Under the pieces are notes generated by a model, which was not told where the DNA came from, ran no database searches, and saw nothing but the letters and a program-made list of their open reading frames with translations. A stretch of 42,821 nt of DNA, from the NCBI GenBank assembly GCA_017848115.1, contig JAGAKZ010000043.1, positions 1-42,821 of the forward strand, read 5' to 3'. The position numbers were made by a program, and so were the translations under genes. This document shows positions 10,895 to 31,246 of the stretch, piece by piece. Position 1 is the stretch's first letter, and the number at the start of each line of letters is the position of its first letter. This DNA is from Oscillospiraceae bacterium (GTDB lineage Bacteria; Bacillota; Clostridia; Oscillospirales; Ruminococcaceae).

Positions 10895-10922
10895 ATATCA
10901 TTCTCCAATATTCTAAATATAT

Positions 10923-13512: not shown

Positions 13513-14790
13513 TTACACTTCTTTCTTACATTTAGTTTTAAAAAATAATTTCTTTATAAGATTCTGCATTTTCTTACCATTGTAATTATAACTAAGTTTC
13601 GACTTAAGTAATTTAATTTCTTCATTTTGCTTATCAACTACATCCATTAATTTATAATTAGCCATTATAGTATCATACAATTTTGCATCCAGTACGTTAA
13701 AATCTCTTGCTGTTTTTTTAGGCGGATTCAATACTGCATTTCTTAACCAGTTATATGAAAAATCTTTTATTTCAGATATTTTTTCATAAACCTTATCATA
13801 GTCTATACTTGAAAAAAGTTCTGTTTTTTTGTATATCTCATTACAATCATAAACTAGCCTATTTTCCAATCCAACAGTTTTCAAAAGCGATTCAAAACGT
13901 TTTACGCCTCTTGTTTTATTAGCAATAGAGATAAATGGTTTACGAAATATTATTGCAAAACATGTACCGTGAAAAGAATCTGTTATTATAAAATTTGCAT
14001 TTTTATAATATGCCAAAAAATCCTCTATATCTATATCGGGTTTGATATTATCAAGATTTAATTGTTTCATTTTTATTTCAAAATCTGTAGCATGAATCAA
14101 ATTAGTATATGGAAGATGTAGTTTTTCTTTTAGATAAATAATAACATTTCTTTTCGCCTCATTAGGATCAAGAATAAAACTACAAAAATAATCATTATTT
14201 ATTTTTACAGTAGATTTTTCTATAAGTTTGTCATATTCCGTAACATCACAAATAAATACGGGATCAAGAACATTTACAGCTTCTAATCCAAAATTATTCT
14301 TCATAATATCCACAGCATAATTTTCTCTTACTGAAAGTGAATTAAATCTTCTTAAATAATATGATATTTTCTGATGAAAAGCAGGGTTACCATTAAAACA
14401 TTCACCAAATGAAGATGCATATGAAATCATATTTTTTAATGGATGTGCAAAATCAAGAAAGTAATTCGGACCCGAATATTTCCATAAAGCTGAGCTAAAC
14501 AACTGATCCGAACCCGATATAAAAGAATCACATATATTATTTAGCGCCCCCATTTTATAAGGGTGATAAATATCACTTATATCATAATACTTTTTGGCAA
14601 ATCTTCTTGGAATCTGACTGTAATCCGGTTTATAATCCGCATCAGAAGATGATTTTTCTATCATAAGTACTGATAATCCCATACTTTTTAATGCCTGGTG
14701 CAGTGCATAATATGTTAGCGTACCGCCATAGTTGGAATTATACCACCAACCAACAACACCAACATCATAATATTTATTATCACTTTCCAT
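13513..14790 (-). CDS. Polysaccharide pyruvyl transferase family protein
   Basis: A 425-residue protein of the polysaccharide pyruvyl transferase family (PF04230; CsaB-like), GT-B fold, expected to add pyruvate from phosphoenolpyruvate as a ketal to a sugar of a surface polymer. Visible family blocks are VGVVGWWYNSNYGGTLTYYA, FISGSDQLF, SVRENYAVDI, VLDPVFI, and ITDSFHGTCFAIIF with the conserved SFHG. A charged C-terminal tail (about 365-425) looks like a short coiled coil plus basic end, suitable for membrane or complex contact. It is similar in length and motifs to the C-terminal half of the next gene upstream in the operon (14977-17256), so the two are paralogues. Weak RBS (TGAGGTT) before the ATG. 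Confidence 0.85.
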   Translation of the reverse strand: MESDNKYYDVGVVGWWYNSNYGGTLTYYALHQALKSMGLSVLMIEKSSSDADYKPDYSQIPRRFAKKYYDISDIYHPYKMGALNNICDSFISGSDQLFSSALWKYSGPNYFLDFAHPLKNMISYASSFGECFNGNPAFHQKISYYLRRFNSLSVRENYAVDIMKNNFGLEAVNVLDPVFICDVTEYDKLIEKSTVKINNDYFCSFILDPNEAKRNVIIYLKEKLHLPYTNLIHATDFEIKMKQLNLDNIKPDIDIEDFLAYYKNANFIITDSFHGTCFAIIFRKPFISIANKTRGVKRFESLLKTVGLENRLVYDCNEIYKKTELFSSIDYDKVYEKISEIKDFSYNWLRNAVLNPPKKTARDFNVLDAKLYDTIMANYKLMDVVDKQNEEIKLLKSKLSYNYNGKKMQNLIKKLFFKTKCKKEV

Positions 14791-14878
14791 ATGTAAATTA
14801 ACCTCATTTCGATCATTTATGATATTGGATTCACACTATTATATTTCCACAAATCTGATATAAAAAGTTATGAACTTC

Positions 14879-14954
14879 ACTTTGTTCTAGTGACACTGTC
14901 ACAACTCAAACTTTAATAATCAATAAAGCATATACAGCATCACTATAACAAAGT
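14879..14954. repeat. 15-bp imperfect inverted repeat between the two pyruvyl-transferase genes
   Basis: ACTTTGTTCTAGTGA (14879-14893) and TCACTATAACAAAGT (14940-14954) are inverted copies with one mismatch and a 46-bp loop. Overlapping the left arm is a 13-bp palindrome GTGACACTGTCAC (14890-14902). On the minus strand the hairpin falls 22 nt after the stop at 14977 and is followed by a weak T-rich run, so it may end or protect that transcript. Confidence 0.5.
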
Positions 14955-14976
14955 TTACAACATTAAGAAAATATTT

Positions 14977-17256: not shown

Positions 17257-17452
17257 TATTATCAACTTCCTTATCTAAACTTACAAGTAAATTATGTGTT
17301 TTCCGCACTTTATCGTCACTATTTTTTTAGATAGTTTAAAATTCTTTTTGCTCTATTACGTATTTTCTCAATTCATTTACTCTTAACTTTGTTAGATTGC
17401 AGTCAGCCTAATTTTTTTAATAATCATATCAATCAATGTATTAAAACGATTA

Positions 17453-19837
17453 TTATCCTTTATTATCATCATTATTAACCAACAAACCCTCTAATAAATT
17501 ATGTAATCTCCAAAGCTCATCATCATTATATTTCTTTATCAACTCATTAGAAAGCCATTTAATTTCATCAAGGTTATTTTTCTGATTGTCAATTCGATTT
17601 TTTATATCATCAATTTGTTGTTGAATAGAATTGATAGAATTCTGTTGCATAGCAACCTGATTTATCAGCTTCGAATAATAATCATAAAAAGCCTGTCTTG
17701 ATGGTGGCATAACTTTCTGGACTATATTTCGTGCAACCTTAAACTTCTTGCGTTTTGTTGTAGTATCGCTACTCAAACATTCTTCCCAGTATGCCTTATA
17801 ATTATCAGCACAATTATCAATATACTTATCTATATTATGTTTTTTGATAATCTTTACAAATTCATTTCTGTATTTTAGTTTATACTCTAAATTGCAATCT
17901 TCAATACTTCTGTATACAAAATCTGAAGCATATTCATAAAAAGCTGAAGAAAACTCTCCGTAAGCTCTTTTTACACTTTCTATTATCCTTCTAAGTATAT
18001 CCAATTGATGCTGTGCGAATACAGTGTTATCTTTTTTTGCTTCATTCATAAGTGAATTTTCACGATAATGACGATAGTAATAAAGCTTATCTGAAATTGA
18101 CATCAGACAACAAACTTTAGGAAGTGCTGAATATAAGAAAACTGCATCTTCACCATATCTTACTGACGCATCAAAAGTAATGTTTTTCTCATCCATAAAA
18201 GATTTTTTAAAGCAAAATCTCCATACAAAAACACCTAAATTTCTATTAACAGCTACTTTATCTACATCAATGTTTTCTATGTATTCATCATTTGTAGACA
18301 ATGTCTGATAATACCACTCATCAGCTCTTGGGTTATCAGGAAAAATATTTGTACCAAATAAAATTGCATCTGCATTTCTTTTATCTGAATTAATTTTTTT
18401 ATTAAGTACATCGCATGTATTCAGAGAAATATAGTCATCGGAATCTACAAAAAGAACATATTTTCCGGCTGAACCACTAAGTCCGGAATTTCTTGCCGCT
18501 GCCAGTCCTGCGTTTTTCTGATTGATAATTTTGATTCTTTTATCAAATCCTGCATATTCTTCAATAATAGAAAGTGAATGATCCGTTGATCCATCATTTA
18601 CACAGATTATTTCAATATCATCAAAAGTTTGATTTACAATGGTATCAAGACAAGAAGATAGATATTTCTCAACATTATAAACAGGTACAACTATAGAAAA
18701 CATTGGACCGTTTTTATTTGATCTTGGTCTCATCTTCTTAATATTGCTTAATGGTGTTACAGGCTCTTTAAATGAAAGATTATCAAAGTTCTGTTCATAT
18801 CTTTCAATATTACGCCATGTCTGATAGTCTATAGGATTATTAGCAATACGGGCAATATCTCTTCGTTTCCACCAACATTCACCAAAAGCAATATTATCCG
18901 TCCCCACTTTATCTATAAGCTCTTTAAACCAAGGTGAAATTGTTTTTAAAAATGAATATCTTTTTCCTACACTTAAACGCTCATACGTCCATATACATGT
19001 ATCATAAAATGCAGCTGCATATATAGGATTCAACTCTTGTTCCTGCTGATTTTCTTTTATAAATTTTTCTATTTCTCTGTATTCCTGAAAAACAAAATCT
19101 ATCTTTTTATCAGCATTATTTACTGAAGAACCGGCATTATCCTGACGATAATGTAAAAATGCATCATACAAGCATACCATCTTTTTAGCACTTGAGTATA
19201 CTTTAAATGTAAAAGATGTATCCTGGAAAGAAGCACCCGGAGTTGGTAAAAATGATATATTATTCTCTTTTATAAAATCATTCTTATAGATTGCTGACCA
19301 TATTGAAGGCTTTCTTCCGTACAATGACCCGTTGTCATATTCATGAGGACATATTACATAACCACATTCTTCTTTTCTGAAATATTCATGCAATTCATTT
19401 TCTTCAGTTTCTCCCCAGTAAAACCAAAAATTTGATTTTACTACATCAGCATCAAATTTTACAGCTGTTTCATAAAGTACTTTGAACATCTCAGGTTCAA
19501 TAAAATCATCACTTTCAACAATACCAATATACTTACCTGTAGCTAATTCAAAACCTTTGTTCATTGAATCTCCATAGCCACTATTTGGTTTATCCAATAT
19601 CTTGATTCTCTTATCTTTAGATGCATATTTTTCAATAATAGATAGTGTATTATCTTTAGAACCGTCATTAACACATATTATTTCCATTTCTTTAAACGTC
19701 TGATCAACAATACTTTTCAAACACTGATCAAGATATTTTTCAACATTACAACAAGGAACAATAACAGAAAGTTTTACATTGTTATCTATCTTTTTGGTAC
19801 TATTGGTACTTTCAGATATTTTACTTTTTTTAGCCAT
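17453..19837 (-). CDS. Tandem GT2 glycosyltransferase
   Basis: A 794-residue protein with two GT-A family 2 domains. Domain 1 (about 21-330) has LSVIVPCCNVEKYLDQCL, IICVNDGSKDNT and VESDDF (107-112). Domain 2 (about 379-620) has FSIVVPVYNVEKYLSSCL, IICVNDGSTDHS, NAGLAAARNSGLS and VDSDDYI (464-470). Both keep the nucleotide- and metal-binding Asp residues, so two transfers or a repeating disaccharide are possible. The C-terminus (about 735-780) is a Gln/Asn-rich coiled coil. It is a cytoplasmic enzyme, probably working on the lipid-linked chain before export. RBS AGAGGT precedes the ATG; 24 nt separate it from the upstream GlfT2-like gene. Confidence 0.9.
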   Translation of the reverse strand: MAKKSKISESTNSTKKIDNNVKLSVIVPCCNVEKYLDQCLKSIVDQTFKEMEIICVNDGSKDNTLSIIEKYASKDKRIKILDKPNSGYGDSMNKGFELATGKYIGIVESDDFIEPEMFKVLYETAVKFDADVVKSNFWFYWGETEENELHEYFRKEECGYVICPHEYDNGSLYGRKPSIWSAIYKNDFIKENNISFLPTPGASFQDTSFTFKVYSSAKKMVCLYDAFLHYRQDNAGSSVNNADKKIDFVFQEYREIEKFIKENQQEQELNPIYAAAFYDTCIWTYERLSVGKRYSFLKTISPWFKELIDKVGTDNIAFGECWWKRRDIARIANNPIDYQTWRNIERYEQNFDNLSFKEPVTPLSNIKKMRPRSNKNGPMFSIVVPVYNVEKYLSSCLDTIVNQTFDDIEIICVNDGSTDHSLSIIEEYAGFDKRIKIINQKNAGLAAARNSGLSGSAGKYVLFVDSDDYISLNTCDVLNKKINSDKRNADAILFGTNIFPDNPRADEWYYQTLSTNDEYIENIDVDKVAVNRNLGVFVWRFCFKKSFMDEKNITFDASVRYGEDAVFLYSALPKVCCLMSISDKLYYYRHYRENSLMNEAKKDNTVFAQHQLDILRRIIESVKRAYGEFSSAFYEYASDFVYRSIEDCNLEYKLKYRNEFVKIIKKHNIDKYIDNCADNYKAYWEECLSSDTTTKRKKFKVARNIVQKVMPPSRQAFYDYYSKLINQVAMQQNSINSIQQQIDDIKNRIDNQKNNLDEIKWLSNELIKKYNDDELWRLHNLLEGLLVNNDDNKG

Positions 19838-19861
19838 GTTTTTTACCTCTTTTTTATTTTC

Positions 19862-21406
19862 TTATTTTTTCAAATAATAGCCTGTCCTTTTGTTTACATT
19901 ATAGTGAAGAACATTTTTATATAAAAAATACATTTCTTTTCTGTCAAAAAAAACATCAACAACAGTATAATCTTTTTTACAAAATACACCTGGAATAAGC
20001 AAACCATATAAAAGCGGTCTCATATACCATTTGTATCTGGTAAGATCAGACTTATGATATTTTTCCTCTGAAAATTTTATTTTATAACGCTTAAATAGTT
20101 CTTCATCAGAAAGCATTTCATAATTAAGTTCACATATTTTTTTATGGTTTTTCTCAGCATCAAGATTTTTTAAATATTCAATTCCTTTAAGATAATCTAT
20201 ATACCCCAGTTTCACTGCTTTTACCATCTGATATTGTCGCCTGCAAAGCTTTTCTAACATTTGTTTACAAACAAGTTTCTTTGCCTGCTTTTTAGTAAAA
20301 CTTTTATCTAAAAGTTTTCTTAAAAATAGATAATTGCGAATGTTATAATATTCAGACGAAGAATTATACTTCCATTCAAATGGTTCATGCCAGACACTGA
20401 CACCATTTAAAGTAATAAAATTCAACTTACATCTTAAAGCATACTCAACATCATCATATTTCATAAAAAACGGCATAGGCAGATGACCGCTTTTGGCATA
20501 AACTGAAGGCATGCACATAAACCACCATCCCCCATAGTTTATATCATTTTCTTTTTCATTTAATATGAGATTTTCACGAACGTTCAAATCCAGATAATGT
20601 CCAAAACTTTTCTGAACACCACTTTCAGAAAAATTTCCACCTGCTTCAAATTGCACAGACGGTTTATTAATATATAACATTGAACCACTTACAGATATAT
20701 TTTTATATTCAGATTTTAAAGCTTTGATAAAACCGAGCATTTTTTTAATTGACAACTTATCAAAGTTTACATCATCATCCATAAGTATAAGATGAGTAAT
20801 CTCTTTATTTTTTATAGCTTCCTCAATTCCTCTGGAATATCCACCACTTCCCCCTGTATTATCATTTAAAATTAATTTTATCTTTTTCCCGAACTTTTCA
20901 TCTCCTAATGTTTTTCCATTATCAACTATAATTATCTGTTTAAGCTCAGAACAATCGTTAAATGATTCTGAAAGATAATTAGCATTTGATATTATATTTT
21001 CTTCCCTTTTATATGTACAAATAATAAGTGTAGCACAAACATCATAAGCATCTGCACACTCTATATAAACCGAAACATTTCTTACTTCCTTACAATCAAT
21101 CAATTTTAAATACAACATCATACTATTTTCAGGAATTAATGAAATATCTATTTTTATTCGATTACCCTTGCCACGATAAATAATACGCTCTTCTTTATCA
21201 GTAAGTGAAATAATATCAGCTACATATTCTCCTTTAGCATCAATGTCAAAAACAATAGCACTAATACTTGTATACTTTAAAACTTTGTTTATAGGTATGC
21301 TGTTAAAATACGTATCAAATGAAAAAGTATCACCGATGTTCCGGAAATATAACTGATATGTATCATCAATAACAGGACTCAATGAAAAATCAAACCATTT
21401 ATACAT
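19862..21406 (-). CDS. GlfT2-like galactofuranosyltransferase (GT2)
   Basis: A 514-residue protein resembling the galactofuranosyltransferase GlfT2 family. An N-terminal beta-sandwich-like region (about 1-120) precedes the GT-A core: TLIICTYKREENI, NDNTGGSGGYSRG (182-193), metal-binding LMDDDVNF (Asp210-212), NYGGWWFMCMP and a conserved HEPFEWKYN, where GlfT2 places catalytic and metal ligands. It should add galactofuranose from UDP-Galf to a lipid-linked acceptor. The gene directly upstream encodes UDP-galactopyranose mutase, which makes that donor, supporting the assignment. GAGGAGC lies 5 nt before the ATG. Confidence 0.87.
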   Translation of the reverse strand: MYKWFDFSLSPVIDDTYQLYFRNIGDTFSFDTYFNSIPINKVLKYTSISAIVFDIDAKGEYVADIISLTDKEERIIYRGKGNRIKIDISLIPENSMMLYLKLIDCKEVRNVSVYIECADAYDVCATLIICTYKREENIISNANYLSESFNDCSELKQIIIVDNGKTLGDEKFGKKIKLILNDNTGGSGGYSRGIEEAIKNKEITHLILMDDDVNFDKLSIKKMLGFIKALKSEYKNISVSGSMLYINKPSVQFEAGGNFSESGVQKSFGHYLDLNVRENLILNEKENDINYGGWWFMCMPSVYAKSGHLPMPFFMKYDDVEYALRCKLNFITLNGVSVWHEPFEWKYNSSSEYYNIRNYLFLRKLLDKSFTKKQAKKLVCKQMLEKLCRRQYQMVKAVKLGYIDYLKGIEYLKNLDAEKNHKKICELNYEMLSDEELFKRYKIKFSEEKYHKSDLTRYKWYMRPLLYGLLIPGVFCKKDYTVVDVFFDRKEMYFLYKNVLHYNVNKRTGYYLKK

Positions 21407-21457
21407 TTATCGCTCCTCACAATATCTGACATACATTATTATCTGAAACATTCTATA

Positions 21458-22567
21458 TTATAAAATATTTTTGCACTTTTCCAAAGCACTTGCTATTACA
21501 GCATCCATATCATAGTATTTATATTCACCGAGTCGTCCGCCGAAAATAATATTTTTCTCATTTTCAGCAAGCTTTCTGTATTCTTCATAAAGCGCACCGT
21601 TCTTTTCATCATTTACAGGGTAATATGGTTCATCACCCGGTTTCCACTCTGAACTGTATTCACGGCTTATTACTGTTTTCGGAATGTCATTTCCGTTTTC
21701 ATCTTTTCCGAACTCAAACCATTTGTGTTCAATGATTCTTGTCCATGGAGTTTCTCTGTCTGTATAATTAACTGCTGCATTTCCCTGGAAATTAGGAATA
21801 TCGAGCAATTCATTTTCAAATCTTACGCTTCTGTACTCAAGTGTACCAAGCTTGTAATCAAAATATGCGTCAATTGCACCTGTATAAACTACTTTCTGAG
21901 CAAGTTTGTCAAGTTCATCTTTATTTTCAAGATAATCAACTCCGAGACGAACTTCTATTCCTTCGAGCATATTTTCAACCATCTTTGTGTATCCGCCTAC
22001 CGGGATTCCCTGATACAAAGCATTGAAATAATTGTTGTCAAAAGTAAGACGTACAGGAAGTCTCTTTATGATAAATGAAGGTAACTCTTTACAATCTCTT
22101 CCCCACTGTTTTTCTGTATATCCCTTTATAAGTTTTTCGTAGATATCTCTTCCTACAAGACTGATAGCCTGTTCTTCAAGGTTACGTGGTTCGCCTGTTA
22201 TTTCTTTACGTTGTTCCTCTATCTTTGCAGCTGCTTCCTCCGGTGTAACAACTCCCCACATTTTATTGAAAGTATACATATTGAAAGGAAGCGAAAAAAG
22301 CTCTCCCTTATAACTAGCAACAGGTGAATTTGTAAATCTGTTGAAAACTGCAAAACGATTTACATAATCCCATACTTCCTTATTGTTTGTGTGGAAAATA
22401 TGTGCTCCGTATTTATGAACGTTTATTCCCTCGATTTTTTCTGTATAAATATTTCCTGCTATATTATCACGCTTATCTATAACCAGAACATTTTTTCCCT
22501 GTTCCTTAGCTTTCTGAGCAAATACCGCTCCATACAAGCCTGCCCCAACTATCAGATAATCATACAT
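21458..22567 (-). CDS. glf: UDP-galactopyranose mutase
   Basis: A 369-residue FAD enzyme, typical length for bacterial UDP-galactopyranose mutase, which interconverts UDP-galactopyranose and UDP-galactofuranose. The N-terminus YDYLIVGAGLYGAVFAQKA is the FAD-binding Rossmann loop. Other family signatures are NIYTEKIEGINVHKYGAHIF, NRFTNSPVASYKGELFSLPF, EKLIKGYTEKQWGRDCKELP, RLPVRLTFDNNYF and IFGGRLGEYKYYDMDAVI, containing the conserved Arg residues that hold the diphosphate. GGAGG lies 9 nt before the ATG. Paired with the GlfT2-like gene downstream, it shows that the polymer contains galactofuranose. Confidence 0.96.
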   Translation of the reverse strand: MYDYLIVGAGLYGAVFAQKAKEQGKNVLVIDKRDNIAGNIYTEKIEGINVHKYGAHIFHTNNKEVWDYVNRFAVFNRFTNSPVASYKGELFSLPFNMYTFNKMWGVVTPEEAAAKIEEQRKEITGEPRNLEEQAISLVGRDIYEKLIKGYTEKQWGRDCKELPSFIIKRLPVRLTFDNNYFNALYQGIPVGGYTKMVENMLEGIEVRLGVDYLENKDELDKLAQKVVYTGAIDAYFDYKLGTLEYRSVRFENELLDIPNFQGNAAVNYTDRETPWTRIIEHKWFEFGKDENGNDIPKTVISREYSSEWKPGDEPYYPVNDEKNGALYEEYRKLAENEKNIIFGGRLGEYKYYDMDAVIASALEKCKNIL

Positions 22568-22604
22568 AATTAGTTTTCCTCCATTTGCCTTAATTTCTAT
22601 GATT

Positions 22605-23357
22605 TTATTTTTTCAGATTTTTATTTTTTTCATTTAAAAAATTCTGATATTTATCACATACTTCTTTTGTATTTCCAAAAGCTTTTACTTTTCCTTTATC
22701 AAGCCACAATACTTTGTTAGCAAGTTTCCTTATCTGCATTACAGAATGAGAAACAAATAAAGTTGTAGTACCGTTTTTTATTATTTCCATCATTTTCTGC
22801 TCACTTTTGGTTCTGAACGCACCATCACCAACAGCAAGAACTTCATCAAGTATCAGTATTTCAGGCTCGATAAGACTCGCTATTGAAAAAGCCATTCTAG
22901 CTCTCATACCAGATGACAACTGCCTTAAACGGTATCCTTCAAATTCTTTAAGTTCAGAAAATTCTATGATTTCATCATATTTTTCATTAAGAAATTCTTC
23001 GGTATATCCCATAAAAGCACCTCTGAGATATATGTTTTCTTTCACAGTAAGGTCATCATCAAACCCTACTCCGAGAGCAAGAAGCGCCGATATATTTCCG
23101 TTTGTTTCTATCTCCCCTTCATTTGGTGTTATAACACCACTTATTGCTTTGAGAAGTGTTGTTTTTCCGGCACCGTTTGTTCCAAGAATACCAAGAAAAT
23201 CTCCCTTGTCAAGACTAAAACTCACATCATTTACTGCCATAAAATCTTTGACGTTGTACTTTCCTGTTATCTTCTGCGAAATAAATTCTTTGATACCAAT
23301 ATTTCTGAAATCTCCGACTCTGTATTTTATCGATACATTTTTTACATCTACTACCAT
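22605..23357 (-). CDS. Polysaccharide/teichoic acid export ABC transporter ATPase
   Basis: A 250-residue ATPase of the TagH/KpsT/RfbE-type subfamily. Walker A is GILGTNGAGKTTLLKAISG, signature LSSGMRARMAFSIAS, Walker B EILILDEVLAVGD, and the switch His is in LFVSHSVMQIRKL. It lacks the extra C-terminal carbohydrate-binding domain of some Wzt proteins, so chain-length recognition must come from elsewhere. It pairs with the permease immediately upstream to export the lipid-linked polymer. Start at the ATG 23357, with GGAGG 5 nt upstream, rather than the in-frame TTG that overlaps that site. Confidence 0.93.
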   Translation of the reverse strand: MVVDVKNVSIKYRVGDFRNIGIKEFISQKITGKYNVKDFMAVNDVSFSLDKGDFLGILGTNGAGKTTLLKAISGVITPNEGEIETNGNISALLALGVGFDDDLTVKENIYLRGAFMGYTEEFLNEKYDEIIEFSELKEFEGYRLRQLSSGMRARMAFSIASLIEPEILILDEVLAVGDGAFRTKSEQKMMEIIKNGTTTLFVSHSVMQIRKLANKVLWLDKGKVKAFGNTKEVCDKYQNFLNEKNKNLKK

Positions 23358-23369
23358 AAAACCCTCCAA

Positions 23370-24152
23370 TCAGAAATAATATGCAAATTTCTTTTCGTTA
23401 AGTCCGTATATCGCTTTTCCTATGAGTAAAAATGCAATCGGAAAAGCTACACACATAAAATGAACATACATGGATGGTATCATATTATCTATTATTATAG
23501 TTCTGAAATAATAGATATAGCAGTAAACCGGATTGTAGAAGAACAGGTGGCGGATATTTTCAGGGAACGAATCTACATAATAAAAGATCGCTGAAAAATA
23601 CGTAAGCATTCTTGTAAAGATACTGTAAATATACTGTGTATCCTTAAAAAACACAAACAACACCGATAGGATATATCCTACTCCCATATTCAAAAAATAA
23701 AGACAGACTATAGGAAAAATCAGCAAAATAAACTTTACATTAAACGTTATTCCGTTAATAGCAATTACTCCAAACATTATAACCATCGTAAGCAGAAAAT
23801 TTATAAGACACGATATACTTCTTGAATAAATAAAAAGTCTTTTATCTACATTTATTTTCGAAATAATACCGCCATTTGCAGATATCGAAAACATAAGATT
23901 TGTAGTAGCATCACTAAAATAATGAAACACTATATTTCCTATAATAAGATAACTTAAAAAATATTCTCCTCTTCCCAAAAGCTTTGAAAAAACTATTGCC
24001 TGTGTTACAAAAAAACAAAGCGGTGACAGCATACTCCAAAGTACGCCAAGAAAAGTACGTTTATACCTGCTCTTAAAATCTCTGTGTATAAGCTGTTTTA
24101 ATAAAAATTTCTTTTGCTTAAGATCACTTCCTGATCTGTTTGTTTTATCCAT
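23370..24152 (-). CDS. Polysaccharide/teichoic acid export ABC-2 permease
   Basis: A 260-residue membrane protein of the ABC-2 type exporter family (TagG/KpsM/Wzm). The N-terminal cytoplasmic helix QLIHRDFKSRYKRTFLGVLW is characteristic. It is followed by about six membrane segments, among them FFVTQAIVFSKLLG, FLLTMVIMFGVIAI and FPIAFLLIGKAIYGL. It forms the channel of the exporter with the ATPase encoded 12 bp downstream. GGAG lies 6 nt before the ATG. Confidence 0.93.
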   Translation of the reverse strand: MDKTNRSGSDLKQKKFLLKQLIHRDFKSRYKRTFLGVLWSMLSPLCFFVTQAIVFSKLLGRGEYFLSYLIIGNIVFHYFSDATTNLMFSISANGGIISKINVDKRLFIYSRSISCLINFLLTMVIMFGVIAINGITFNVKFILLIFPIVCLYFLNMGVGYILSVLFVFFKDTQYIYSIFTRMLTYFSAIFYYVDSFPENIRHLFFYNPVYCYIYYFRTIIIDNMIPSMYVHFMCVAFPIAFLLIGKAIYGLNEKKFAYYF

Positions 24153-24164
24153 ACATACTCCAAT

Positions 24165-26951
24165 CTATTTTATTTTAGTTTTTTCTCCATTTGTAAGCTC
24201 ATCAAATATACAATTTTCAAAGACTTTTTCTATTTCCTTGTTATTATGCTTTACAGCATACATAAACGGCGTATAAGCATCGCTTCCTGAGATATTTCTC
24301 ATAAAAGGATACTTTTCAAAGGCTTTCACATAATCTTTTACAAAATCAGTTTCACCTTTCTGAATATCTGTTATCAGCTGTTTGTTTTCACACTGCTTGT
24401 CAAAAACAAATCCATATCCGTTTTCAGTAAGAGTAAACTCCAGAAAACTCGGTTCGGGAGCAGTAAAGAGCATCTCAAAATAAACATTGTGCTTTGCTGC
24501 AGGAGAATGAACCATGAACTTGTCTCGGTTAAATGATGAAGAAAAACAGTACGGAGTCATTTTTTCCGTAATGAAAAATGTTTCACTGATATCCATGTCA
24601 AACTGACTGTATGAATTACTTCCTGCAAGCAGTCCGACAAATTCGCAGTTTATGTTCCATTTTTTATTTGCAACCTGTTCAAGTATTATATTTCCGCTTC
24701 CTGCCCATCCACAGTCAACTGTTATTACTTTGCCACAGCCTTCAAGAACTGTTTCAAAATACATTTTTGCTGCTTTGTTCATATCTTCGTATGAACAAAG
24801 GATATCTTCAAACTTTTCCTCTATAAACTGCTCAAAAGTATCTGCATTATCGGATGTAAGGAAACTTTCAGGTTCAAAAGGATATTCACCCTCAAATCCT
24901 ATACTTTCAAATATTTTTTTTATCTTTATATTGTTATTTATTTTCTGATGTAAAAAACGCTTAAAAAAATTGTCCTTGAAAAGATCTGCTCCTAACTTTG
25001 CAGAACAGTTTCTTGACCAGTAAACATATTCGGTTTTCATATCACTGTACAGACTGTCAAAAATCTTTTTAGTCATATAACCGTCTCTTGACAGAAACAG
25101 TATCTTATCAGCCTTATGCTTTAAAGCGTGATCTCTGATAAAGTTACAGAAACCAAGCTGAAGTATACCGCCGTACTTATATCCGAAGTTGTATGCAGAA
25201 TTATTTATTTCATATCCGCTGTACATTTTTTTGTTTACTATACCGCTGTATGCCGAACATATTATCGGAGACATATCCTTTGGTCTGTATGACTCACCAA
25301 GTTCGTTTACGTTTTTGTACTGTATCGTACTAAACCCATGCTTTCCTGCGTTTCTTATATCCGAATGATAATTGTCACCGATATGAATTATTTTTTGATC
25401 CAAAAAATCTTTTTTTACTGTTTCATACAGTTTGCCATCGCATTTTCCGCTGTCATAATCGCATGAAACATATATTTTCTCATATCCCGTAAAGCCGTTT
25501 TTCTCAAGAATTTTCCCAAGAAACTCAGCAGGCAGATACATATCGGAAACTATTATTTTCTTTTTATCTCTGAGCTTGTCCCAGATTTCTTTCATAAAAG
25601 GATTTGCTATGCACAACTCATATTCTGCAGATTTTTCAGCATTAATTGCGTCATCTGAATCAATACCGGCTTTCTTTTCAAGATAGTCATAGATGTGTTT
25701 TATATTTATCTCTGATTTGCATATCTTTCTTACCGACTGCTCTGCAACAGTTCTTATAGTCTTAAAATCAGGATATTTAAGCTTCTCACCTACGATATAG
25801 AAAAGAGCTGTCGGCTCTGAAAAAGGTCTGAAAACAAGTGTGTCAAACATATCAAATGATATTACATCATACTGACGCATCATATCTGCAATTTCCTGTG
25901 TCGAATACTTCTGACCCGATCCCGACGAGTTAAGTTCTGACTTAACTTTTTTTGAAATCGCAGTAGTTCTTTTGAAAACAAGGCTTTCTATATTAAGTCT
26001 TAAAAGATATAACCATGATATGAGCGGAAATCTGGTGTGAAGTTCCCTGTGGGAATTTACATAACCTTCATAGTTATATTTTATATAGCTGTTTCTGTTT
26101 ACTATCTTTCCGTAAAGACTAAGAAGAACTGTTCGCTTGCAGAGTATTCCGCTTTTTTTAAGATTTTTCAGATTAAAGAGAAGCTTGTTCGGAACTGCTA
26201 TAAGTACAAGAGGTTTAAGTACATAAGGTATACCCCGTGGCATAAGTCCGAGCTTTTTGAAGCCTTCTCTTCTGACTTTAAATTCATCAAAGCGCATCTG
26301 ACGGCTGACCATATTTTTCTTTTCTTCAGAATAAAAAGTATACAGAAGCTGATTTATATTTGCGCCTTTAAAGCCTTCAGAATACACTCTCATGAAAAAT
26401 TCATAGTCTTCATATTTAAGACATTTTCCTACCGCTTTATAATTTCCGCATTTTTCAAATACTTCTCTGCGAAATATAACCGTTCCGTGAACGAAAGGAG
26501 AATTGAACAGAAAGTCTGTCTTTTTTGGATATTCGGGAACGTGTCTCTCACCGTAGACACAATTTTGATCATACAGCAGACAACCTGAGCCTACAAATGC
26601 GATATCTTTGTTATTTTTTAAAAAATCGATCTGTATCTGAAACCTTGTCAGCGTCGAATAGTCATCAACATCCTGCCTGGCGATAAAATCACCTGTTGCC
26701 ACTTCAAGACATTTGTTAAGAGCATGTGCAAGTCCTTGATTTTTTTTATTTTCAATTATCTTTATTCTGCTATCTGTAACTGCTTTTTTATGCAACCATT
26801 TTACTGTATCATTCGTAGAACCGTCATCACATATTATAAACTCCAGATTCTTATAGGTCTGATTTACTATTGAATCTACAGCACGCAATAACATTTTTTC
26901 CGAAGGACAGTTGTATACCCCCATAATTACAGACAGATATGGCTCCGGCAT
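24165..26951 (-). CDS. GT2 glycosyltransferase fused to HAD/COG5610-like domains
   Basis: A 928-residue three-part protein. Residues about 5-230 are a GT2 domain (YLSVIMGVYNCPSEKML, FIICDDGSTNDT, ARQDVDDYS at 91-99). Residues about 360-550 are a HAD phosphatase-like domain of the COG5610 type: SFDMFDTLVFRP (motif I, Asp367/Asp370), KIIVSDMYLP (motif II) and IIHIGDNYHSD (motif IV). Residues about 590-780 are the domain that usually follows it, with ILFLSRDGYMTKKIF and TVDCGWAGSGNI. The same last domain forms most of the neighbouring 26951-28252 protein. COG5610 proteins are common in capsule loci, but their reaction is not settled. The ATG overlaps the upstream TAA by one base (TAATG). Confidence 0.82.
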   Translation of the reverse strand: MPEPYLSVIMGVYNCPSEKMLLRAVDSIVNQTYKNLEFIICDDGSTNDTVKWLHKKAVTDSRIKIIENKKNQGLAHALNKCLEVATGDFIARQDVDDYSTLTRFQIQIDFLKNNKDIAFVGSGCLLYDQNCVYGERHVPEYPKKTDFLFNSPFVHGTVIFRREVFEKCGNYKAVGKCLKYEDYEFFMRVYSEGFKGANINQLLYTFYSEEKKNMVSRQMRFDEFKVRREGFKKLGLMPRGIPYVLKPLVLIAVPNKLLFNLKNLKKSGILCKRTVLLSLYGKIVNRNSYIKYNYEGYVNSHRELHTRFPLISWLYLLRLNIESLVFKRTTAISKKVKSELNSSGSGQKYSTQEIADMMRQYDVISFDMFDTLVFRPFSEPTALFYIVGEKLKYPDFKTIRTVAEQSVRKICKSEINIKHIYDYLEKKAGIDSDDAINAEKSAEYELCIANPFMKEIWDKLRDKKKIIVSDMYLPAEFLGKILEKNGFTGYEKIYVSCDYDSGKCDGKLYETVKKDFLDQKIIHIGDNYHSDIRNAGKHGFSTIQYKNVNELGESYRPKDMSPIICSAYSGIVNKKMYSGYEINNSAYNFGYKYGGILQLGFCNFIRDHALKHKADKILFLSRDGYMTKKIFDSLYSDMKTEYVYWSRNCSAKLGADLFKDNFFKRFLHQKINNNIKIKKIFESIGFEGEYPFEPESFLTSDNADTFEQFIEEKFEDILCSYEDMNKAAKMYFETVLEGCGKVITVDCGWAGSGNIILEQVANKKWNINCEFVGLLAGSNSYSQFDMDISETFFITEKMTPYCFSSSFNRDKFMVHSPAAKHNVYFEMLFTAPEPSFLEFTLTENGYGFVFDKQCENKQLITDIQKGETDFVKDYVKAFEKYPFMRNISGSDAYTPFMYAVKHNNKEIEKVFENCIFDELTNGEKTKIK

Positions 26952-28252
26952 TAACTCACCCTCTGTCTAAATTTTATAATCACGTATTTTGTAAGAAAAT
27001 ACATATATTTATAGTAAGTTTTTATCAGTAAATTGCTTACCTTTACCGATCCGCAGTACCAATAAAAACTGTCTGTAGATTCCCGGTGAAAAGTCCGGTA
27101 AAATATCATCTGTTTTCTGTACTGAGCGTTTTCCTCAATCTGTACAAGATGATTATGATACTGTTCCCCTACATCATCGCACAGGCAATAATCTCTGAAA
27201 GTATATACTTCATACTCTGTAGGATGAAACATGAGTTGTTTTAACAGTTTCAAAGCAATTTTTCTGTGCTTGTCTTCATATGACATATCACATTCAAAAG
27301 CAAACTTTTCTGACAGTTCCTTAAGGAGCAGATTACCTTCAGAACTATTTTCACTTTCTGAAAGTACAGGTTTAACTCTGTGACTTTTATCATATGTATA
27401 TCCCATAGTAGTACCATGAGGTGCACTGCATATACACTCAAGCAGATTGTGAGAAAACCATGATTTTACTGAAGCTGTATTTTCATCAAATAACCAGGTG
27501 ATATATTCACTGTTTTCTGCTTTCGGAGGTGAATCAAGCATACCTATATAGAAACCTGTTATATGAGCGTCTATACCGGCACTCGAAAGCAACCTTTTTA
27601 ATGTGTATTGCAAAGAACCTGTCCAGCCAAGATCAACAATTCCGATATTTTTGAATCTGTCAAATCTCTCCTGAACTATATATTCCATCGTGCTGCTGTA
27701 AGCACTGTCTGATTTTTGGGTTATGATCTCTGAAAATTTTTCTGAATTTTTTATCTTCTCACACAGCTGACTAAACTCTGTTTTAACTATAATGTCGTGT
27801 TCTTTTTCTTTGTCATATCCTATCTCATCATATACCATATAGCGTTCTTCTGATGAAAATCCCGCTCTTTTTAGCATATTATAAGCACTTAACTCATATG
27901 AATACAAAAAAAGTTTTTCATATGCACTGTCATCAAAAAAACGATATGCAGCCATTCTGAGAGAATATCTTGAACAATAAAAATAGGAACACTCTGTGTC
28001 GATATTCATCTTCTTACACAAAACCTTAGCTATATGATACAAAAGATATCCGTCACGTGCAAAAAAATACAGATGTTCTATATTTCTTTTTTTGGCTTCA
28101 CAAAGTATCCAGTGTACGTACATAACAAGAGAAGGAGCTATAACGCTAAGCGATATCTTATAAAATGAATCCATATTATCATATGACAACTGTTTTACTG
28201 CTTCAAGTAACTCAGGATCTTTTTTTAAAATATTTTTATATCTGTTTTTCAA
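26951..28252 (-). CDS. COG5610-associated domain protein
   Basis: A 433-residue protein homologous to the C-terminal domain of the 928-residue protein encoded next to it: HLYFFARDGYLLYHIA (about 64-76) corresponds to ILFLSRDGYMTKKI, YFYCSRYSLRMA to YVYWSRNCSAKL, and GIVDLGWTGSLQYTL to TVDCGWAGSGNIIL. It has no HAD catalytic core or GT2 domain. Function unknown; context implies assembly or modification of the exported polymer. The start is a TTG at 28252, overlapping the TGA of the upstream GT4 gene, with GAGGAGG 10 nt before it; the next Met is 26 residues in, so the TTG start is preferred. Confidence 0.7.
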   Translation of the reverse strand: MKNRYKNILKKDPELLEAVKQLSYDNMDSFYKISLSVIAPSLVMYVHWILCEAKKRNIEHLYFFARDGYLLYHIAKVLCKKMNIDTECSYFYCSRYSLRMAAYRFFDDSAYEKLFLYSYELSAYNMLKRAGFSSEERYMVYDEIGYDKEKEHDIIVKTEFSQLCEKIKNSEKFSEIITQKSDSAYSSTMEYIVQERFDRFKNIGIVDLGWTGSLQYTLKRLLSSAGIDAHITGFYIGMLDSPPKAENSEYITWLFDENTASVKSWFSHNLLECICSAPHGTTMGYTYDKSHRVKPVLSESENSSEGNLLLKELSEKFAFECDMSYEDKHRKIALKLLKQLMFHPTEYEVYTFRDYCLCDDVGEQYHNHLVQIEENAQYRKQMIFYRTFHRESTDSFYWYCGSVKVSNLLIKTYYKYMYFLTKYVIIKFRQRVS

Positions 28253-29421
28253 GCCCGCATAACCTCCTCACCATAAACAACTGTATCTTCTTTAAGATAA
28301 GAATGATATATATCTGACATTGATTTTAGTGAATTTTTTATATCAAAAGGAGCAACTGCCTTTGATGCATTTTCACCGAGAAACTCTCTTAGTTCCTGAT
28401 TATTCACAAGTTTCTTTATAGCTTCTGCATATCCTTTTACATCATCGGGTGGAAGTAAAATACTGTTGTGCATATTCACGGCGTATTCTCTCACACCTCT
28501 TATATCAGATGCTATAATAGGAACTCCTGCTGACATAGCTTCTATAGGTGCCACACCAAGACCTTCTCTGTAAGAAGGAAACAAAAAAATATCAGCAATA
28601 TGTACGACTTCAAAAATATCATAACGATATCCTGCAAATATGACTCTGTCGGAAATTTTAAGATCATCAGAAAGCTTCCGGCAATTGTCAAGCATATCTC
28701 CGCTGCCACATACGAGATAATAAACGTTTTTATCTTTTACCTCTGCAAAAGCTTTAAGAGATGTCTCTAAATTTTTATTTTTATTTATTTCAGATACCGA
28801 TAACAGTACAACAGCATCTTCGGGAATACCGAATTTTTGCTTTAAGTTTTTTCTGTTCACGCTCATAGAAGCTATTTTTTCTGTATCAACTCCCATTCCA
28901 TGAACATAAAAAACTTTGCAATCTGATTTTTCACAAAAACTGCTTGCAGCCTTATAGTCCTCACTATTGATAGTTATTATACCATCTGTATACTTTATAA
29001 GGAACTTTTCTATGTAATAATAGATTTGACTTAGCTTTGATGAACCATAAAAAAAATGAAATCCATGTGTGGTGTACAAAACGACTGTTCCTTTTTTCCG
29101 GATTTTTTTTGCAGCAAGACGTGTAATAGCTGCGGCAATCGGAGTATGACAATGTATCAGATCATAATCATTTTTTTCCATGATTTCTTTTATATCGCGA
29201 TAAGCAATGAGATTTGAATGATCCACAGGAGACCTGCTGAAATCAATATCATAAAACTTATCACAATATGGTATGTTACAAACTGACTTGTCTTCATAAT
29301 CGTTTCTGGCACATACATGAACTTCATAACCCTGTTCCTTAAACCATCTGAGATATGGGATATGGAACTGGCAAATATGTTTTTTTACAACAGTAGCGAT
29401 AAACAATACCCTTCTGCTCAT
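28249..29421 (-). CDS. GT4 glycosyltransferase, first gene of the polysaccharide locus
   Basis: A 390-residue GT-B glycosyltransferase of family 4. The N-terminal acceptor domain has YLRWFKEQGYEVHVCARND, DLIHCHTPIAAAITRL and TTHGFHFFYG. The C-terminal donor domain has VLLSVSEINKNKNLETSL, VIFAGYRYDI, and the Glu-containing EX7E block FPSYREGLGVAPIEAMSAGVP. It resembles EpsD/YveN-type enzymes that add an early sugar to a lipid carrier. As the first gene it would receive transcription first from the invertible promoter segment upstream. GGAGG lies 13 nt before the ATG, rather far, with AGGGG closer. Confidence 0.88.
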   Translation of the reverse strand: MSRRVLFIATVVKKHICQFHIPYLRWFKEQGYEVHVCARNDYEDKSVCNIPYCDKFYDIDFSRSPVDHSNLIAYRDIKEIMEKNDYDLIHCHTPIAAAITRLAAKKIRKKGTVVLYTTHGFHFFYGSSKLSQIYYYIEKFLIKYTDGIITINSEDYKAASSFCEKSDCKVFYVHGMGVDTEKIASMSVNRKNLKQKFGIPEDAVVLLSVSEINKNKNLETSLKAFAEVKDKNVYYLVCGSGDMLDNCRKLSDDLKISDRVIFAGYRYDIFEVVHIADIFLFPSYREGLGVAPIEAMSAGVPIIASDIRGVREYAVNMHNSILLPPDDVKGYAEAIKKLVNNQELREFLGENASKAVAPFDIKNSLKSMSDIYHSYLKEDTVVYGEEVMRA

Positions 29422-29534
29422 AGCCCCTAAAATCCCTCCTTTCCTAAACTCTTTAACTTAAATCCAAAACTATATCACAAATTTATATTATATAAACTAT
29501 AGGGTATAATATATTTTAAATAAATTAATCTTGT
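29422..29534 (-). promoter_or_regulatory. Fixed leader between the invertible segment and the polysaccharide locus
   Basis: 113 bp from the left inverted repeat to the first start codon. On the minus strand there are AT-rich -10-like strings such as TATAAT, but none has a -35 resembling TTGACA at 16-18 bp. I therefore see no good resident promoter, which fits a locus whose main promoter is supplied from the adjacent segment. AGGAGG near 29433-29439 is the ribosome binding site. Confidence 0.5.
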
Positions 29535-29565
29535 TTTTCGTTAAATAACGTAATTCAAGAAAAAA
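29535..29565 (+). repeat. Left inverted repeat of the invertible segment (31 bp)
   Basis: The core CGTTAAATAACG is itself near-palindromic (CGTTA/TAACG arms), followed by TAATTCAAG and six A. It is an exact inverted copy of 30744-30774. Flanking bases do not match between the two ends, so the repeat is sharply bounded, as expected of recombination sites. Confidence 0.95.
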
Positions 29566-29573
29566 TCATATAT

Positions 29574-30653
29574 TTAGAAAATCGGTTCAAGCATATTCAT
29601 ATATTTTATTTTTTGTTCAAAAGATGAATGAACATATCTGTTAAGCGTTATTTCAACATTTGAGTGTCCTAATATTTCAGATAACGCTTTTACATCAAAT
29701 CCGGCTTTTATACAGTTTGAAGCGAACATATGTCTTAACGCATGAAAATGAATTGACGGTAAGTTTACGTTTTTTAATACCTTTGCAAATCTGTATTGCA
29801 GAGTACGAGGCTCTATAGCTTTGTTTTTTCCTGATAAAATATATTCTTTTTTATCACCTCTGAACTTTTCCATAAATTTTATCATAAAATCCGGTATAGG
29901 TATCGTTCTGTTCGAAGTATCGCTTTTAGGTTCTGTTATTATTATCTTCGTTTTTTTATTTTCATGTTGACAACTTATTCGTTGAATTGTTTTTCTGACG
30001 GTCATAATACGTTTTTTTAAATCAATATCTTCCCATTGTAAAGCACAAAGTTCACCTATTCTCAGACCTGTAGAAAGTGAAAGTGCAATACCCATAGTAG
30101 TTCGATTTTGATTTTCGAATATATATTTTTTTAATTTATCAGTTTCATTTTCCTCTAACAGACGTATTTCTGAGATTTTCTTTCTTGGCAATGAAATATT
30201 TGAAAGAGGATTATATATGTTATAGTTATCAGATGCATATTTAAAAATAGATTTTACCATAACAACTATATCTGATATATATCTGTTTGACAAACCGTTT
30301 TGTTGTTTTATTTTAATAAATGAATATATATACTGTGCATTAAATGAATTGATGTAAGCATCACCGAAATCAGGTAATATATGTTTTGAGGCCTTTATAC
30401 GATAATTTGATAAGGTTGATTCTTTTACTTTGTGAGATATACTTTTATACCATTCATTAAATATTTTCTCTACAGTATATGAGCCTGATTCTGAACATTT
30501 TACTTTTCTTATCGCATCTATCTTACGTATAACTTCTTCTTTGCTTTTTCCAAATATATATTTATATTTTCTTTTCCCTTTTTCGTCCTTCTTTTTCAAT
30601 AATCGTCCTTCCCATCTGCCGTCCTGTCGATGATAAATGTTGTATTTTTCCAT
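29574..30653 (-). CDS. Tyrosine recombinase (site-specific DNA invertase/integrase)
   Basis: A 359-residue tyrosine recombinase. The N-terminus YNIYHRQDGRWEGRLLKK is the arm-type DNA-binding domain seen in Tn916/phage integrases, residues about 60-150 are the SAM-like core-binding domain, and the catalytic domain has the complete active site: Arg198 (STGLRIGELCALQW), Lys243 (EPKSDTSNRT), His304 and Arg307 (HFHALRHMFAS), His330 (LGHSNVEITLNRY) and Tyr340. GGAGG lies 6 nt before the ATG. It sits alone between perfect 31-bp inverted repeats, which suggests that it flips its own segment. An integrase role with a lost partner element is the alternative, but no excisionase or conjugation genes are nearby. 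As drawn, its transcript would run leftward towards the polysaccharide locus. Confidence 0.93.
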   Translation of the reverse strand: MEKYNIYHRQDGRWEGRLLKKKDEKGKRKYKYIFGKSKEEVIRKIDAIRKVKCSESGSYTVEKIFNEWYKSISHKVKESTLSNYRIKASKHILPDFGDAYINSFNAQYIYSFIKIKQQNGLSNRYISDIVVMVKSIFKYASDNYNIYNPLSNISLPRKKISEIRLLEENETDKLKKYIFENQNRTTMGIALSLSTGLRIGELCALQWEDIDLKKRIMTVRKTIQRISCQHENKKTKIIITEPKSDTSNRTIPIPDFMIKFMEKFRGDKKEYILSGKNKAIEPRTLQYRFAKVLKNVNLPSIHFHALRHMFASNCIKAGFDVKALSEILGHSNVEITLNRYVHSSFEQKIKYMNMLEPIF

Positions 30654-30672
30654 TATAAACCTCCAAAAAACT

Positions 30673-30700
30673 ATAATATATGGGTTGACATATATGTCGA
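30673..30700 (-). promoter_or_regulatory. Possible recombinase promoter overlapping the outward promoter
   Basis: On the minus strand TCGACA (30695-30700), 16 bp, TATTAT (30673-30678). Its -35 overlaps that of the right-facing promoter through the perfect palindrome GACATATATGTC (30687-30698). The predicted start point is only a few bases before the GGAGG, so the leader would be very short, and the call is tentative. Confidence 0.35.
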
Positions 30701-30713
30701 TATATGTTATAAT
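30685..30713 (+). promoter_or_regulatory. Perfect consensus promoter inside the invertible segment, pointing outward
   Basis: TTGACA (30685-30690), exactly 17 bp, TATAAT (30708-30713). It points right, through the right inverted repeat. No gene lies on the plus strand downstream before 33621, and a strong terminator follows at 30786. In the flipped state it would face the polysaccharide locus. Confidence 0.85.
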
Positions 30714-30743
30714 TTAAATTATTATACGTATATTATTTATACG

Positions 30744-30774
30744 TTTTTTCTTGAATTACGTTATTTAACGAAAA
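30744..30774 (-). repeat. Right inverted repeat of the invertible segment (31 bp)
   Basis: Exact inverted copy of 29535-29565: six T, CTTGAATTACGTTA and TTTAACG followed by AAAA. It lies 30 bp beyond the -10 of the outward promoter and 11 bp before the stem of the plus-strand terminator. Confidence 0.95.
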
Positions 30775-30785
30775 TATTTTATATG

Positions 30786-30816
30786 AGAATCATACAAATC
30801 GGTATGATTCTTTTTT
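30786..30816 (+). terminator. Intrinsic terminator facing the invertible segment
   Basis: GAATCATAC (30787-30795) and GTATGATTC (30802-30810) make a perfect 9-bp stem with a 6-nt loop, followed by six T. It lies just outside the right repeat and would stop transcription leaving the segment rightward: the outward promoter in the present orientation, or the recombinase gene in the flipped one. Confidence 0.9.
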
Positions 30817-30829
30817 GTTGCAAATAAAA

Positions 30830-30858: not shown

Positions 30859-30865
30859 GTATTTT

Positions 30866-31228: not shown

Positions 31229-31246
31229 TTTTATAAAACCACCTTT

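What the first reader, a model, noticed from the sequence alone, without database searches (positions are those of the whole stretch)
29535..30774. Self-contained invertible cassette: tyrosine recombinase inside perfect 31-bp inverted repeats, upstream of a polysaccharide locus
The repeats at 29535-29565 and 30744-30774 are identical in inverted orientation over 31 bp, with non-matching flanks, and enclose only a tyrosine recombinase with a complete R-K-H-R-H-Y active site plus a promoter region. Tyrosine recombinases that flip promoters are known to control surface genes (for example RecV switches in Clostridioides difficile and Tsr enzymes in Bacteroides). Here the recombinase gene itself lies within the flipping segment next to a 22-kb polysaccharide locus, so the switch would change both capsule transcription and the recombinase's own reading direction.
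Basis: partly seen in the sequence, partly recalled or inferred. Interest (0 to 1): 0.92.

Follow-up and report, generated by a model that had tools for sequence, protein, structure and literature searches.

The report
Self-flipping promoter cassette, integrase inside
A bacterium related to Ruminococcus carries a 1.2-kb piece of DNA that holds its own recombinase and a strong promoter and can turn around in place, probably switching a 22-kb surface-sugar locus on and off; many relatives carry similar self-contained switches beside other genes.

Summary
In detail: 31-bp perfect inverted repeats enclose one tyrosine recombinase gene; 30 block-shuffled windows reach at most 17 bp. Inversion is seen between genomes: Ruminococcus sp. 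SIG549, 99% identical, has the same segment flipped between collinear flanks. A perfect sigma-70-type promoter (30685-30713) inside points through the right arm into a terminator-like hairpin (30785-30812) in the window, but at the polysaccharide genes in SIG549: predicted OFF here, ON there. The enzyme is Tn1549/Tn916-like. It belongs to a clade: 78 of 88 sampled homologues are enclosed by inverted repeats, against 7 of 1042 decoy intervals and 0 of 26 other tyrosine recombinases. A promoter of at least 11/12 pointing away from the recombinase occurs in 48 of 78, against 10 of 1560 shuffles. Cassette orientation relative to a homologous flanking gene is kept in 55 of 88 locus pairs; flanking genes keep theirs in 44 of 44 comparisons. 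Neighbours vary: polysaccharide, LytTR regulators, surface proteins, candidate defence genes. New variant of a known kind; the effect on expression is untested.

The parts
29535..29565 (.). left arm of the 31-bp inverted repeat, presumed recombination site
   Evidence: identical arms in flipped SIG549 locus
30744..30774 (.). right arm of the inverted repeat
29574..30653 (-). tyrosine recombinase, 359 aa, Tn1549/Tn916-like: N-terminal strand-strand-strand-helix domain, core-binding and catalytic domains
30685..30713 (+). strong outward promoter TTGACA-17-TATAAT with TG before the second hexamer (12 of 12); points out through the right arm
   Evidence: consensus match
30673..30700 (-). weaker candidate promoter of the recombinase (TCGACA-16-TATTAT, 10 of 12), overlapping the outward promoter head to head
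   Evidence: consensus match only
30687..30698 (.). 12-bp palindrome GACATATATGTC across both first hexamers, possible operator
   Evidence: read; function inferred
30785..30812 (+). intrinsic-terminator-like hairpin ten bases outside the right arm; would stop the outward promoter in the window orientation
   Evidence: fold of 30780-30822 -12.9 kcal/mol, z -4.2
7114..29421 (-). surface polysaccharide locus (GT4, GT2s, ABC-2 permease and ATPase, UDP-galactopyranose mutase, two pyruvyl transferases, hexapeptide transferase, cytidylyltransferase, HMGL-like; 7114-7806 HAD-like by eye); predicted target in the flipped state
28249..29421 (-). first gene of the target locus, GT4 glycosyltransferase; 113 bp between its start and the left arm
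29469..29496 (-). weak promoter-like site in the fixed leader of the polysaccharide locus (9 of 12, TG); would give basal expression in both states if real
   Evidence: promoter-like matches there are near chance level (16 found, 12.8 expected, sd 3.9)

Best explanation
It is an autonomous invertible promoter cassette. The recombinase, a resident relative of Tn1549/Tn916 integrases, recombines its two inverted sites and turns the 1.24-kb segment, including its own gene, around in place. Shown: both orientations exist in near-identical genomes, with arms and promoter region unchanged. Inferred: in the window the strong outward promoter fires through the right arm into the terminator (polysaccharide OFF, apart from any leak from the recombinase's weak promoter, which reads toward the polysaccharide genes with no terminator found between); in SIG549 it fires through the left arm into the 22-kb polysaccharide locus (ON), while the weak recombinase transcript would end at that terminator. 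Also inferred, more loosely: the overlapping head-to-head promoters keep recombinase scarce, so flips are rare and the state is inherited. Relatives reuse the same module beside other loci, in 27 of 78 cases with outward-facing genes on both sides, so that a flip could swap one for the other.
For: Flipped sister locus; outward 12/12 promoter and flanking terminator; same architecture in homologues: inverted repeats in 78 of 88 and in 16 of 20 outside the family, against 7 of 1042 decoys, 0 of 20 and 0 of 6 other tyrosine recombinases; outward promoter of at least 11/12 in 48 of 78 against 10 of 1560 shuffles and 1 of 78 in the recombinase direction; cassette against flank kept in 55 of 88 locus pairs, flank against flank in 31 of 31 and 13 of 13; site spacer identical in the two arms in 88 of 94 while half-sites often differ; one group on the tree.
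Against: No expression data; promoters and terminators are consensus matches. Only one near-identical pair, two assemblies, shows the flip for this very locus; an assembly error at the arms is not formally excluded (that 31-bp arms are bridged by ordinary reads is my inference). A weak promoter-like site lies outside the segment (29469-29496), so OFF may be leaky. 10 of 88 sampled homologues have no spanning repeats by my test and 5 of the 78 with repeats have no outward promoter of 9/12. Three Enterococcus raffinosus strains with a related cassette show one orientation. Terminators near the arms are only mildly commoner on sides without an outward-facing gene (17 of 47 against 19 of 98, p = 0.04). 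The window cassette lacks the arm-type motif of many relatives.
Confidence: 0.85

Rival explanations
1. A minimal mobile element (insertion-sequence-like, or relic of an integrative element) whose terminal inverted repeats are its moving ends; the two orientations are two insertions.
For: Enzyme is closest to Tn1549 integrase; 5 of 40 inward-facing neighbours of relatives match MobL relaxases; relatives occur on plasmids and viral contigs.
Against: Flanks are collinear and the arms identical to the base in the two genomes, so a second insertion would have to hit the same base; no other copy of the arm in the (81% complete) assembly; sites read as half-sites around a spacer kept identical between arms; outward promoter is conserved.
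Confidence: 0.05
2. The cassette inverts, but polysaccharide expression comes mainly from a fixed promoter, and inversion mostly tunes recombinase read-through or other genes.
For: Weak fixed promoter-like site at 29469-29496; boxA-like motif after the recombinase in 22 of 78 relatives suggests that recombinase-side transcripts matter there.
Against: The fixed site is of a quality found near chance level; a perfect promoter pointing outward with a terminator on the opposite flank fits control of the neighbour; across relatives the outward promoter is far better conserved than the recombinase-ward one.
Confidence: 0.08
3. Fossil switch: the segment inverted in the past and is now locked.
For: Some relatives look decayed: L033 is truncated with one site left; several listed matches have internal stops.
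Against: Recombinase open in both genomes, 2 nonsynonymous against 6 synonymous changes over 360 codons; arms perfect.
Confidence: 0.02

Closest known systems
Clostridioides difficile RecV switches (PMC5903667: abstract, passages and section 13 seen)
   Same: tyrosine recombinase, inverted repeats, invertible regulatory segment, phase variation in a clostridium
   Different: seven segments of 154-230 bp, none described as holding a recombinase; RecV acts on several; here 1.24 kb with its own enzyme and sites
Providencia stuartii fimbrial switch in PMC5903667 (section 13 seen)
   Same: putative invertible segment (844 bp plus 14-bp imperfect repeats) that encloses a recombinase gene
   Different: one case outside Clostridia; enzyme class not stated in that section; no family, promoter or site analysis there
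Hin flagellar switch of Salmonella (named in PMC5903667 as a recombinase within the segment; other details recalled)
   Same: recombinase gene and outward promoter inside the inverting segment
   Different: serine recombinase; unrelated enzyme
Tn916/Tn1549 integrases (PMC8138268: abstract, passages and section 9 seen; PDB 6en0, 6en2)
   Same: closest solved structures; N-terminal three-strand, one-helix domain
   Different: those move elements; here the sites beside the gene are inverted and enclose nothing but the enzyme, and the segment keeps its place in SIG549
hCom2 inverton group 139 with invertase group 35 (PMC11892184: section 8 and passages seen)
   Same: inverton group of 33, 32 from Clostridia, linked to a tyrosine-type integrase group that intersects or lies within 5 kb; may include members of this family
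   Different: the parts I saw do not say that the enzyme lies inside; membership not checked

Membership tests
Inverton (invertible promoter phase-variation switch) | segment bounded by inverted repeats | tested here: met
Inverton (invertible promoter phase-variation switch) | both orientations occur | tested here: met
   window against SIG549, (two genomes, not one culture)
Inverton (invertible promoter phase-variation switch) | promoter inside the segment points outward | tested here: met
   at sequence level
Inverton (invertible promoter phase-variation switch) | expression of the neighbour changes with orientation | not testable with these tools
   no RNA or protein data
IntTn916 subgroup of tyrosine recombinases | N-terminal arm-binding domain of three strands and one helix | tested here: met
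   AlphaFold2 model strands 5-8, 14-22, 28-35 and helix 38-52; layout as in PMC8138268 section 9. Sub-threshold AP2 hits in 5 of 8 N-termini, none for the window's own; the fold comparison hardly covers this part
IntTn916 subgroup of tyrosine recombinases | core-binding and catalytic domains like Tn1549 Int | tested here: met
IntTn916 subgroup of tyrosine recombinases | beta-stranded insertion between second and third strands of the catalytic domain | tested here: inconclusive
   model has strands 216-219, 222-227, 235-240, 249-252; not compared strand by strand
Integrative mobile element of the Tn916/Tn1549 kind | attachment sites beside the integrase in direct orientation, enclosing transfer or cargo genes | tested here: not met
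   sites are inverted and enclose only the enzyme; whether a larger element surrounds it was not searched
Hin/Gin serine DNA invertases | serine recombinase | tested here: not met
   PF00589 tyrosine recombinase
Tyrosine-type DNA invertases NF007370, NF007371 (that these are FimB/FimE-type models is recalled) | score over the curated cut-off | tested here: not met
   28.0 and 25.5 bits against 221 and 222

The most novel reading that the evidence does not exclude
A whole clade of Tn916-type tyrosine integrases with an arm-binding-type domain has given up mobility and become self-enclosed, portable promoter switches across Clostridia, with relatives in Enterococcus (not placed on the tree). Each copy carries its own enzyme, mostly its own site spacer, and a strong outward promoter; many carry arm-type direct repeats (CCGTCA...GTCA) just before the start and just after the stop of the gene, so flipping would be controlled by a lambda-Int-like higher-order complex and possibly autoregulated. 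Placed between two outward-facing operons it would act as a selector between two systems, for example an ATPase-like gene and a Zorya-like defence locus in the window's own genome.
Probability: 0.6. Interest if true: 0.82.

Novelty: new variant of a known kind. Interest (0 to 1): 0.72.

Why it matters
It turns a single curiosity into a searchable class: here a recombinase gene can be recognised as the owner of its own switch, whereas PMC5903667 (introduction passage) holds that recombinases cannot be used to find inversions because they need not lie at the site. It predicts, gene by gene, which loci of Clostridia may be phase variable, including polysaccharide, LytTR regulators, dockerin-bearing surface proteins, chemotaxis receptors and candidate phage defence. 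It also qualifies the view that an arm-binding domain goes with mobility (PMC8138268, abstract), and offers a compact one-piece memory switch for anaerobes.

Tried and rejected
Other copies of the arm in the genome: none. Relatives in viral contigs with the single protein: none; with alignment A1, 79 loci, of which I tested 21; 6 have spanning repeats of score 14 or more, all 6 among the 12 of the 21 with the lowest E-values. Rfam on 28000-32500: no match. Idea that the helicase beside L031, L032 and L034 is a defence gene: PADLOC hits are partial (best 5.6e-14) and L031 continues into genes that look like glycosyltransferases by eye, so not claimed. Idea that the window cassette uses the CCGTCA motif: absent from its two spacers (90 and 8 bp); two copies inside its gene lie on conserved protein stretches and are taken as chance. 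Orientation difference in Enterococcus raffinosus: three of three alike. Longest exact repeat shared by the two spacers averages 8.0 direct, 7.3 inverted and 6.9 in shuffles over 73 cassettes, so strong only in part of them. The fold list hardly covers residues before about 55, so the N-terminal domain rests on the model's order of strands and helix. Not counted in the 88: L038 (G006:C29, 42% identical piece at a contig end, no spanning repeat) and the contig-end pieces G008:C328 and G006:C246. L045 and L047, two further recombinases of the window's genome, had no spanning repeat of 14 or more and are not among the 26 controls.

Full report
OBSERVATION. The two repeats are at the stated coordinates and match 31 of 31. 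In the whole window the next longest exact inverted repeat within 2.5 kb is 15 bp, and 30 block-shuffled windows reach at most 17 bp. The assembly (G000, 3.34 Mb, 108 contigs, completeness 81%) has no third copy of a 21-base piece of the arm at up to 3 mismatches. Between the arms the only ORF of 90 aa or more is the recombinase, 30653..29574 on the minus strand, 359 aa, with Phage_integrase and Phage_int_SAM_3.

THE FLIP. The species-level scan, with the single protein, found one relative: L010, Ruminococcus sp. isolate SIG549 (SVNW01000018.1; the same coordinates as G003:C20, L044). Its flanks are collinear with the window, 99.37% over 3 kb on the left and 98.60% over 3 kb on the right, but the 1240-base segment matches in reverse complement, 1232 of 1240; both arms are identical to the base. 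The eight differences lie in the recombinase gene, six synonymous and two nonsynonymous. The flip is seen between two assemblies, not within one culture.

WHICH STATE. The promoter scan finds a perfect TTGACA-17-TATAAT with TG before the second hexamer at 30685-30713 on the plus strand. In the window it points out through the right arm; ten bases beyond that arm starts a plus-strand terminator-like hairpin, 30785-30812 (two such sites found in the region, 0.6 expected; fold -12.9 kcal/mol, z -4.2). In SIG549 the same promoter points left, through the left arm, at the polysaccharide genes. I therefore read the window as OFF and SIG549 as ON. The recombinase's own candidate promoter (10 of 12) overlaps the strong one head to head; it moves with the gene, so inversion only changes what the weak transcript runs into. 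In the OFF state that transcript runs toward the polysaccharide genes without a terminator that the scan found, so OFF may leak; a weak promoter-like site at 29469-29496 outside the segment could do the same, but promoter-like matches there are near chance level.

THE TARGET. Minus-strand genes from 29421 to 7114 include a GT4, several GT2, an ABC-2 permease and ATPase, UDP-galactopyranose mutase, two polysaccharide pyruvyl transferases, a hexapeptide transferase, a cytidylyltransferase and an HMGL-like protein; two have no Pfam match and the last was not scanned. On the other side a 120-aa gene faces the cassette, then come an AraC-type regulator and a dockerin-bearing GH5 gene.

A FAMILY. 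I searched 396 genomes of the family; 97 have a match at E 1e-60 or better. I fetched 80 of the listed matches, mostly from the top down, and added eight loci from the genus search, SIG549 among them; the window itself is not counted. Spanning inverted repeats with a score of at least 14 enclose 78 of the 88, three of them at exactly 14. Random intervals of the same length in the same loci reach that score in 7 of 1042. The ten misses are L033 (truncated enzyme, one site left), L084 and L090 (contig edge), L059 (score 12), and L052, L058, L070, L076, L078 and L102. In the class, 31 of 291 genomes have a match at 1e-70; of 20 chosen matches outside the family 16 are enclosed. Of 20 other PF00589 recombinases and 6 more distant ones in the genus none is. 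In a quick maximum-likelihood tree of 134 rows the 108 family rows, 94 with and 14 without repeats, form one group (SH-aLRT 96) that excludes the 26 controls (midpoint root, some long control branches). More distant relatives (32-50% identical) on Enterococcus megaplasmids, a Vescimonas plasmid and Ruminococcus albus 7 plasmid pRUMAL02 also show such repeats: score 14 or more in 7 of 8 plasmid loci examined of 12 records found, E. gilvus 12.

CONSERVED ANATOMY. Between the 5' arm and the start codon a promoter pointing away from the recombinase reaches 9 of 12 in 73, at least 11 of 12 in 48 and 12 of 12 in 19 of 78 cassettes; dinucleotide shuffles reach 11 in 10 and 12 in 1 of 1560; in the recombinase direction 1 of 78 reaches 11. 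An automatic palindromic reading of each site gives half-sites around a 5-7 base spacer (it is uncertain for the window's own site); the spacer is identical in the two arms in 88 of 94 cassettes, while half-sites differ in many (the repeat search itself favours matching centres, so this is supportive, not independent). The three cassettes of the window's genome have different arms; G104 and G318 each hold two with the same spacer.

FLIPPING ACROSS SPECIES. Among 88 pairs of loci that share a homologous flanking gene, the recombinase keeps its strand relative to that gene in 55. Flanking genes keep their relative strand in 31 of 31 comparisons on one side and 13 of 13 across the cassette. For recombinases at least 80% identical the count is 7 pairs same and 3 opposite. 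Pairs are not independent. Of 78 cassettes 27 have outward-facing first neighbours on both sides, 11 only on the side the promoter faces, 26 only on the other, 3 on neither and 11 could not be scored; 11 against 26 gives p = 0.02. Genes were called by a simple ORF script.

ARM-TYPE REPEATS. The 7-mer GCCGTCA is the commonest in the spacers after the stop codon (24 of 78). The motif chosen from this and earlier output, CCGTCA followed by A or G, occurs on the recombinase strand mostly about 50 bases before the start in 27 of 78 and about 10 bases after the stop in 30 of 78 cassettes, both in 16; shuffles predict 0.7 and 0.35; the opposite strand has 2 and 1 occurrences against 31 and 33. A second GTCA follows 6-8 bases later in 22 and 16 of 78 against 0.4 and 0.05 expected. 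Same-strand repeats at both ends of an enzyme with an arm-binding-type domain suggest arm sites. The window cassette, with very short spacers, has none, so this belongs to part of the family, not to the window.

NEIGHBOURS. Pfam on 87 first genes of at least 100 aa that face outward: LytTR response regulators 11, ResIII or DEAD 7, HTH_3 6, dockerin 4, and two each of Wzz, MCP, glycosyltransferase 1, MazF-like and others. LytTR is not among the 25 commonest families of 40 inward-facing first genes, where Sel1 and MobL lead with 5 each. In the window's own genome L035 lies between a 772-aa protein with weak ATPase-domain hits and ZorA/ZorB-like genes; beside L031 lies an AbiLi-like ATPase gene.

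LITERATURE. Ten full-text searches gave no listed title or abstract start that describes such a family; most listed papers were not opened, and the held library lacks most subscription papers. Jiang et al. 2019 on invertons is recalled, not seen. PMC5903667 (abstract, passages, section 13) mentions Hin and one Providencia segment enclosing a recombinase, and inversions near chemotaxis genes in Clostridia without saying what they enclose; two relatives here also lie beside MCP genes. PMC11892184 (section 8 and passages) links a Clostridia inverton group to a tyrosine integrase group, which may or may not be this clade. So the kind, an inverting promoter segment, is known; the self-enclosed Tn916-type family is the part I found no account of.

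VERDICT. Inversion: shown between genomes. OFF/ON effect on the polysaccharide locus: inferred, likely. Family of self-enclosed switches: well supported by controls. Arm-site control and two-target selection: suggestive.

Noticed in passing
L035 (G000:C41), cassette 8520-9905: Second cassette in the window's own genome lies between a 772-aa gene with weak ATPase-domain hits (its outward promoter faces it) and a ZorA/ZorB-like locus facing the other way: a possible selector between two systems.
   Followed up: partly
L036 (G000:C42) 8821-8849 and L035 8515-8539: The recombination site itself forms a hairpin followed by a T run in the flank, so the arm resembles a terminator on that side.
   Followed up: partly
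3' spacers of 22 of 78 cassettes, e.g. L057, L097: boxA-like motif CTTGAAAA-TGAATA between recombinase stop and 3' arm, almost only on the recombinase strand, mostly where the CCGTCA motif is missing (18 box only, 39 CCGTCA only, 4 both, 17 neither; resemblance to boxA is recalled).
   Followed up: partly
L033 (G001:C2) 9379-10392: Relic: recombinase lacking its C-terminal tyrosine region with only one site seen, perhaps a locked former switch.
   Followed up: no
L031 (G005:C91) and L032 (G001:C1): Same helicase-type gene lies at the 3' arm in one and at the 5' arm in the other, with recombinases 79% identical: a second flipped pair; L031 also shares the AraC-type neighbour of the window locus at 40% identity.
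   Followed up: yes
L248, L250, L251 (Enterococcus raffinosus megaplasmids): Distant relative with spanning repeats next to an accessory Sec locus, same orientation in three strains.
   Followed up: partly
window 5419-5997 and 6089-6940: Two neighbouring related ORFs with the same ERNFLISK..GMTDEQI ending; by eye they resemble PD-(D/E)XK-type transposase family proteins (recalled).
   Followed up: no
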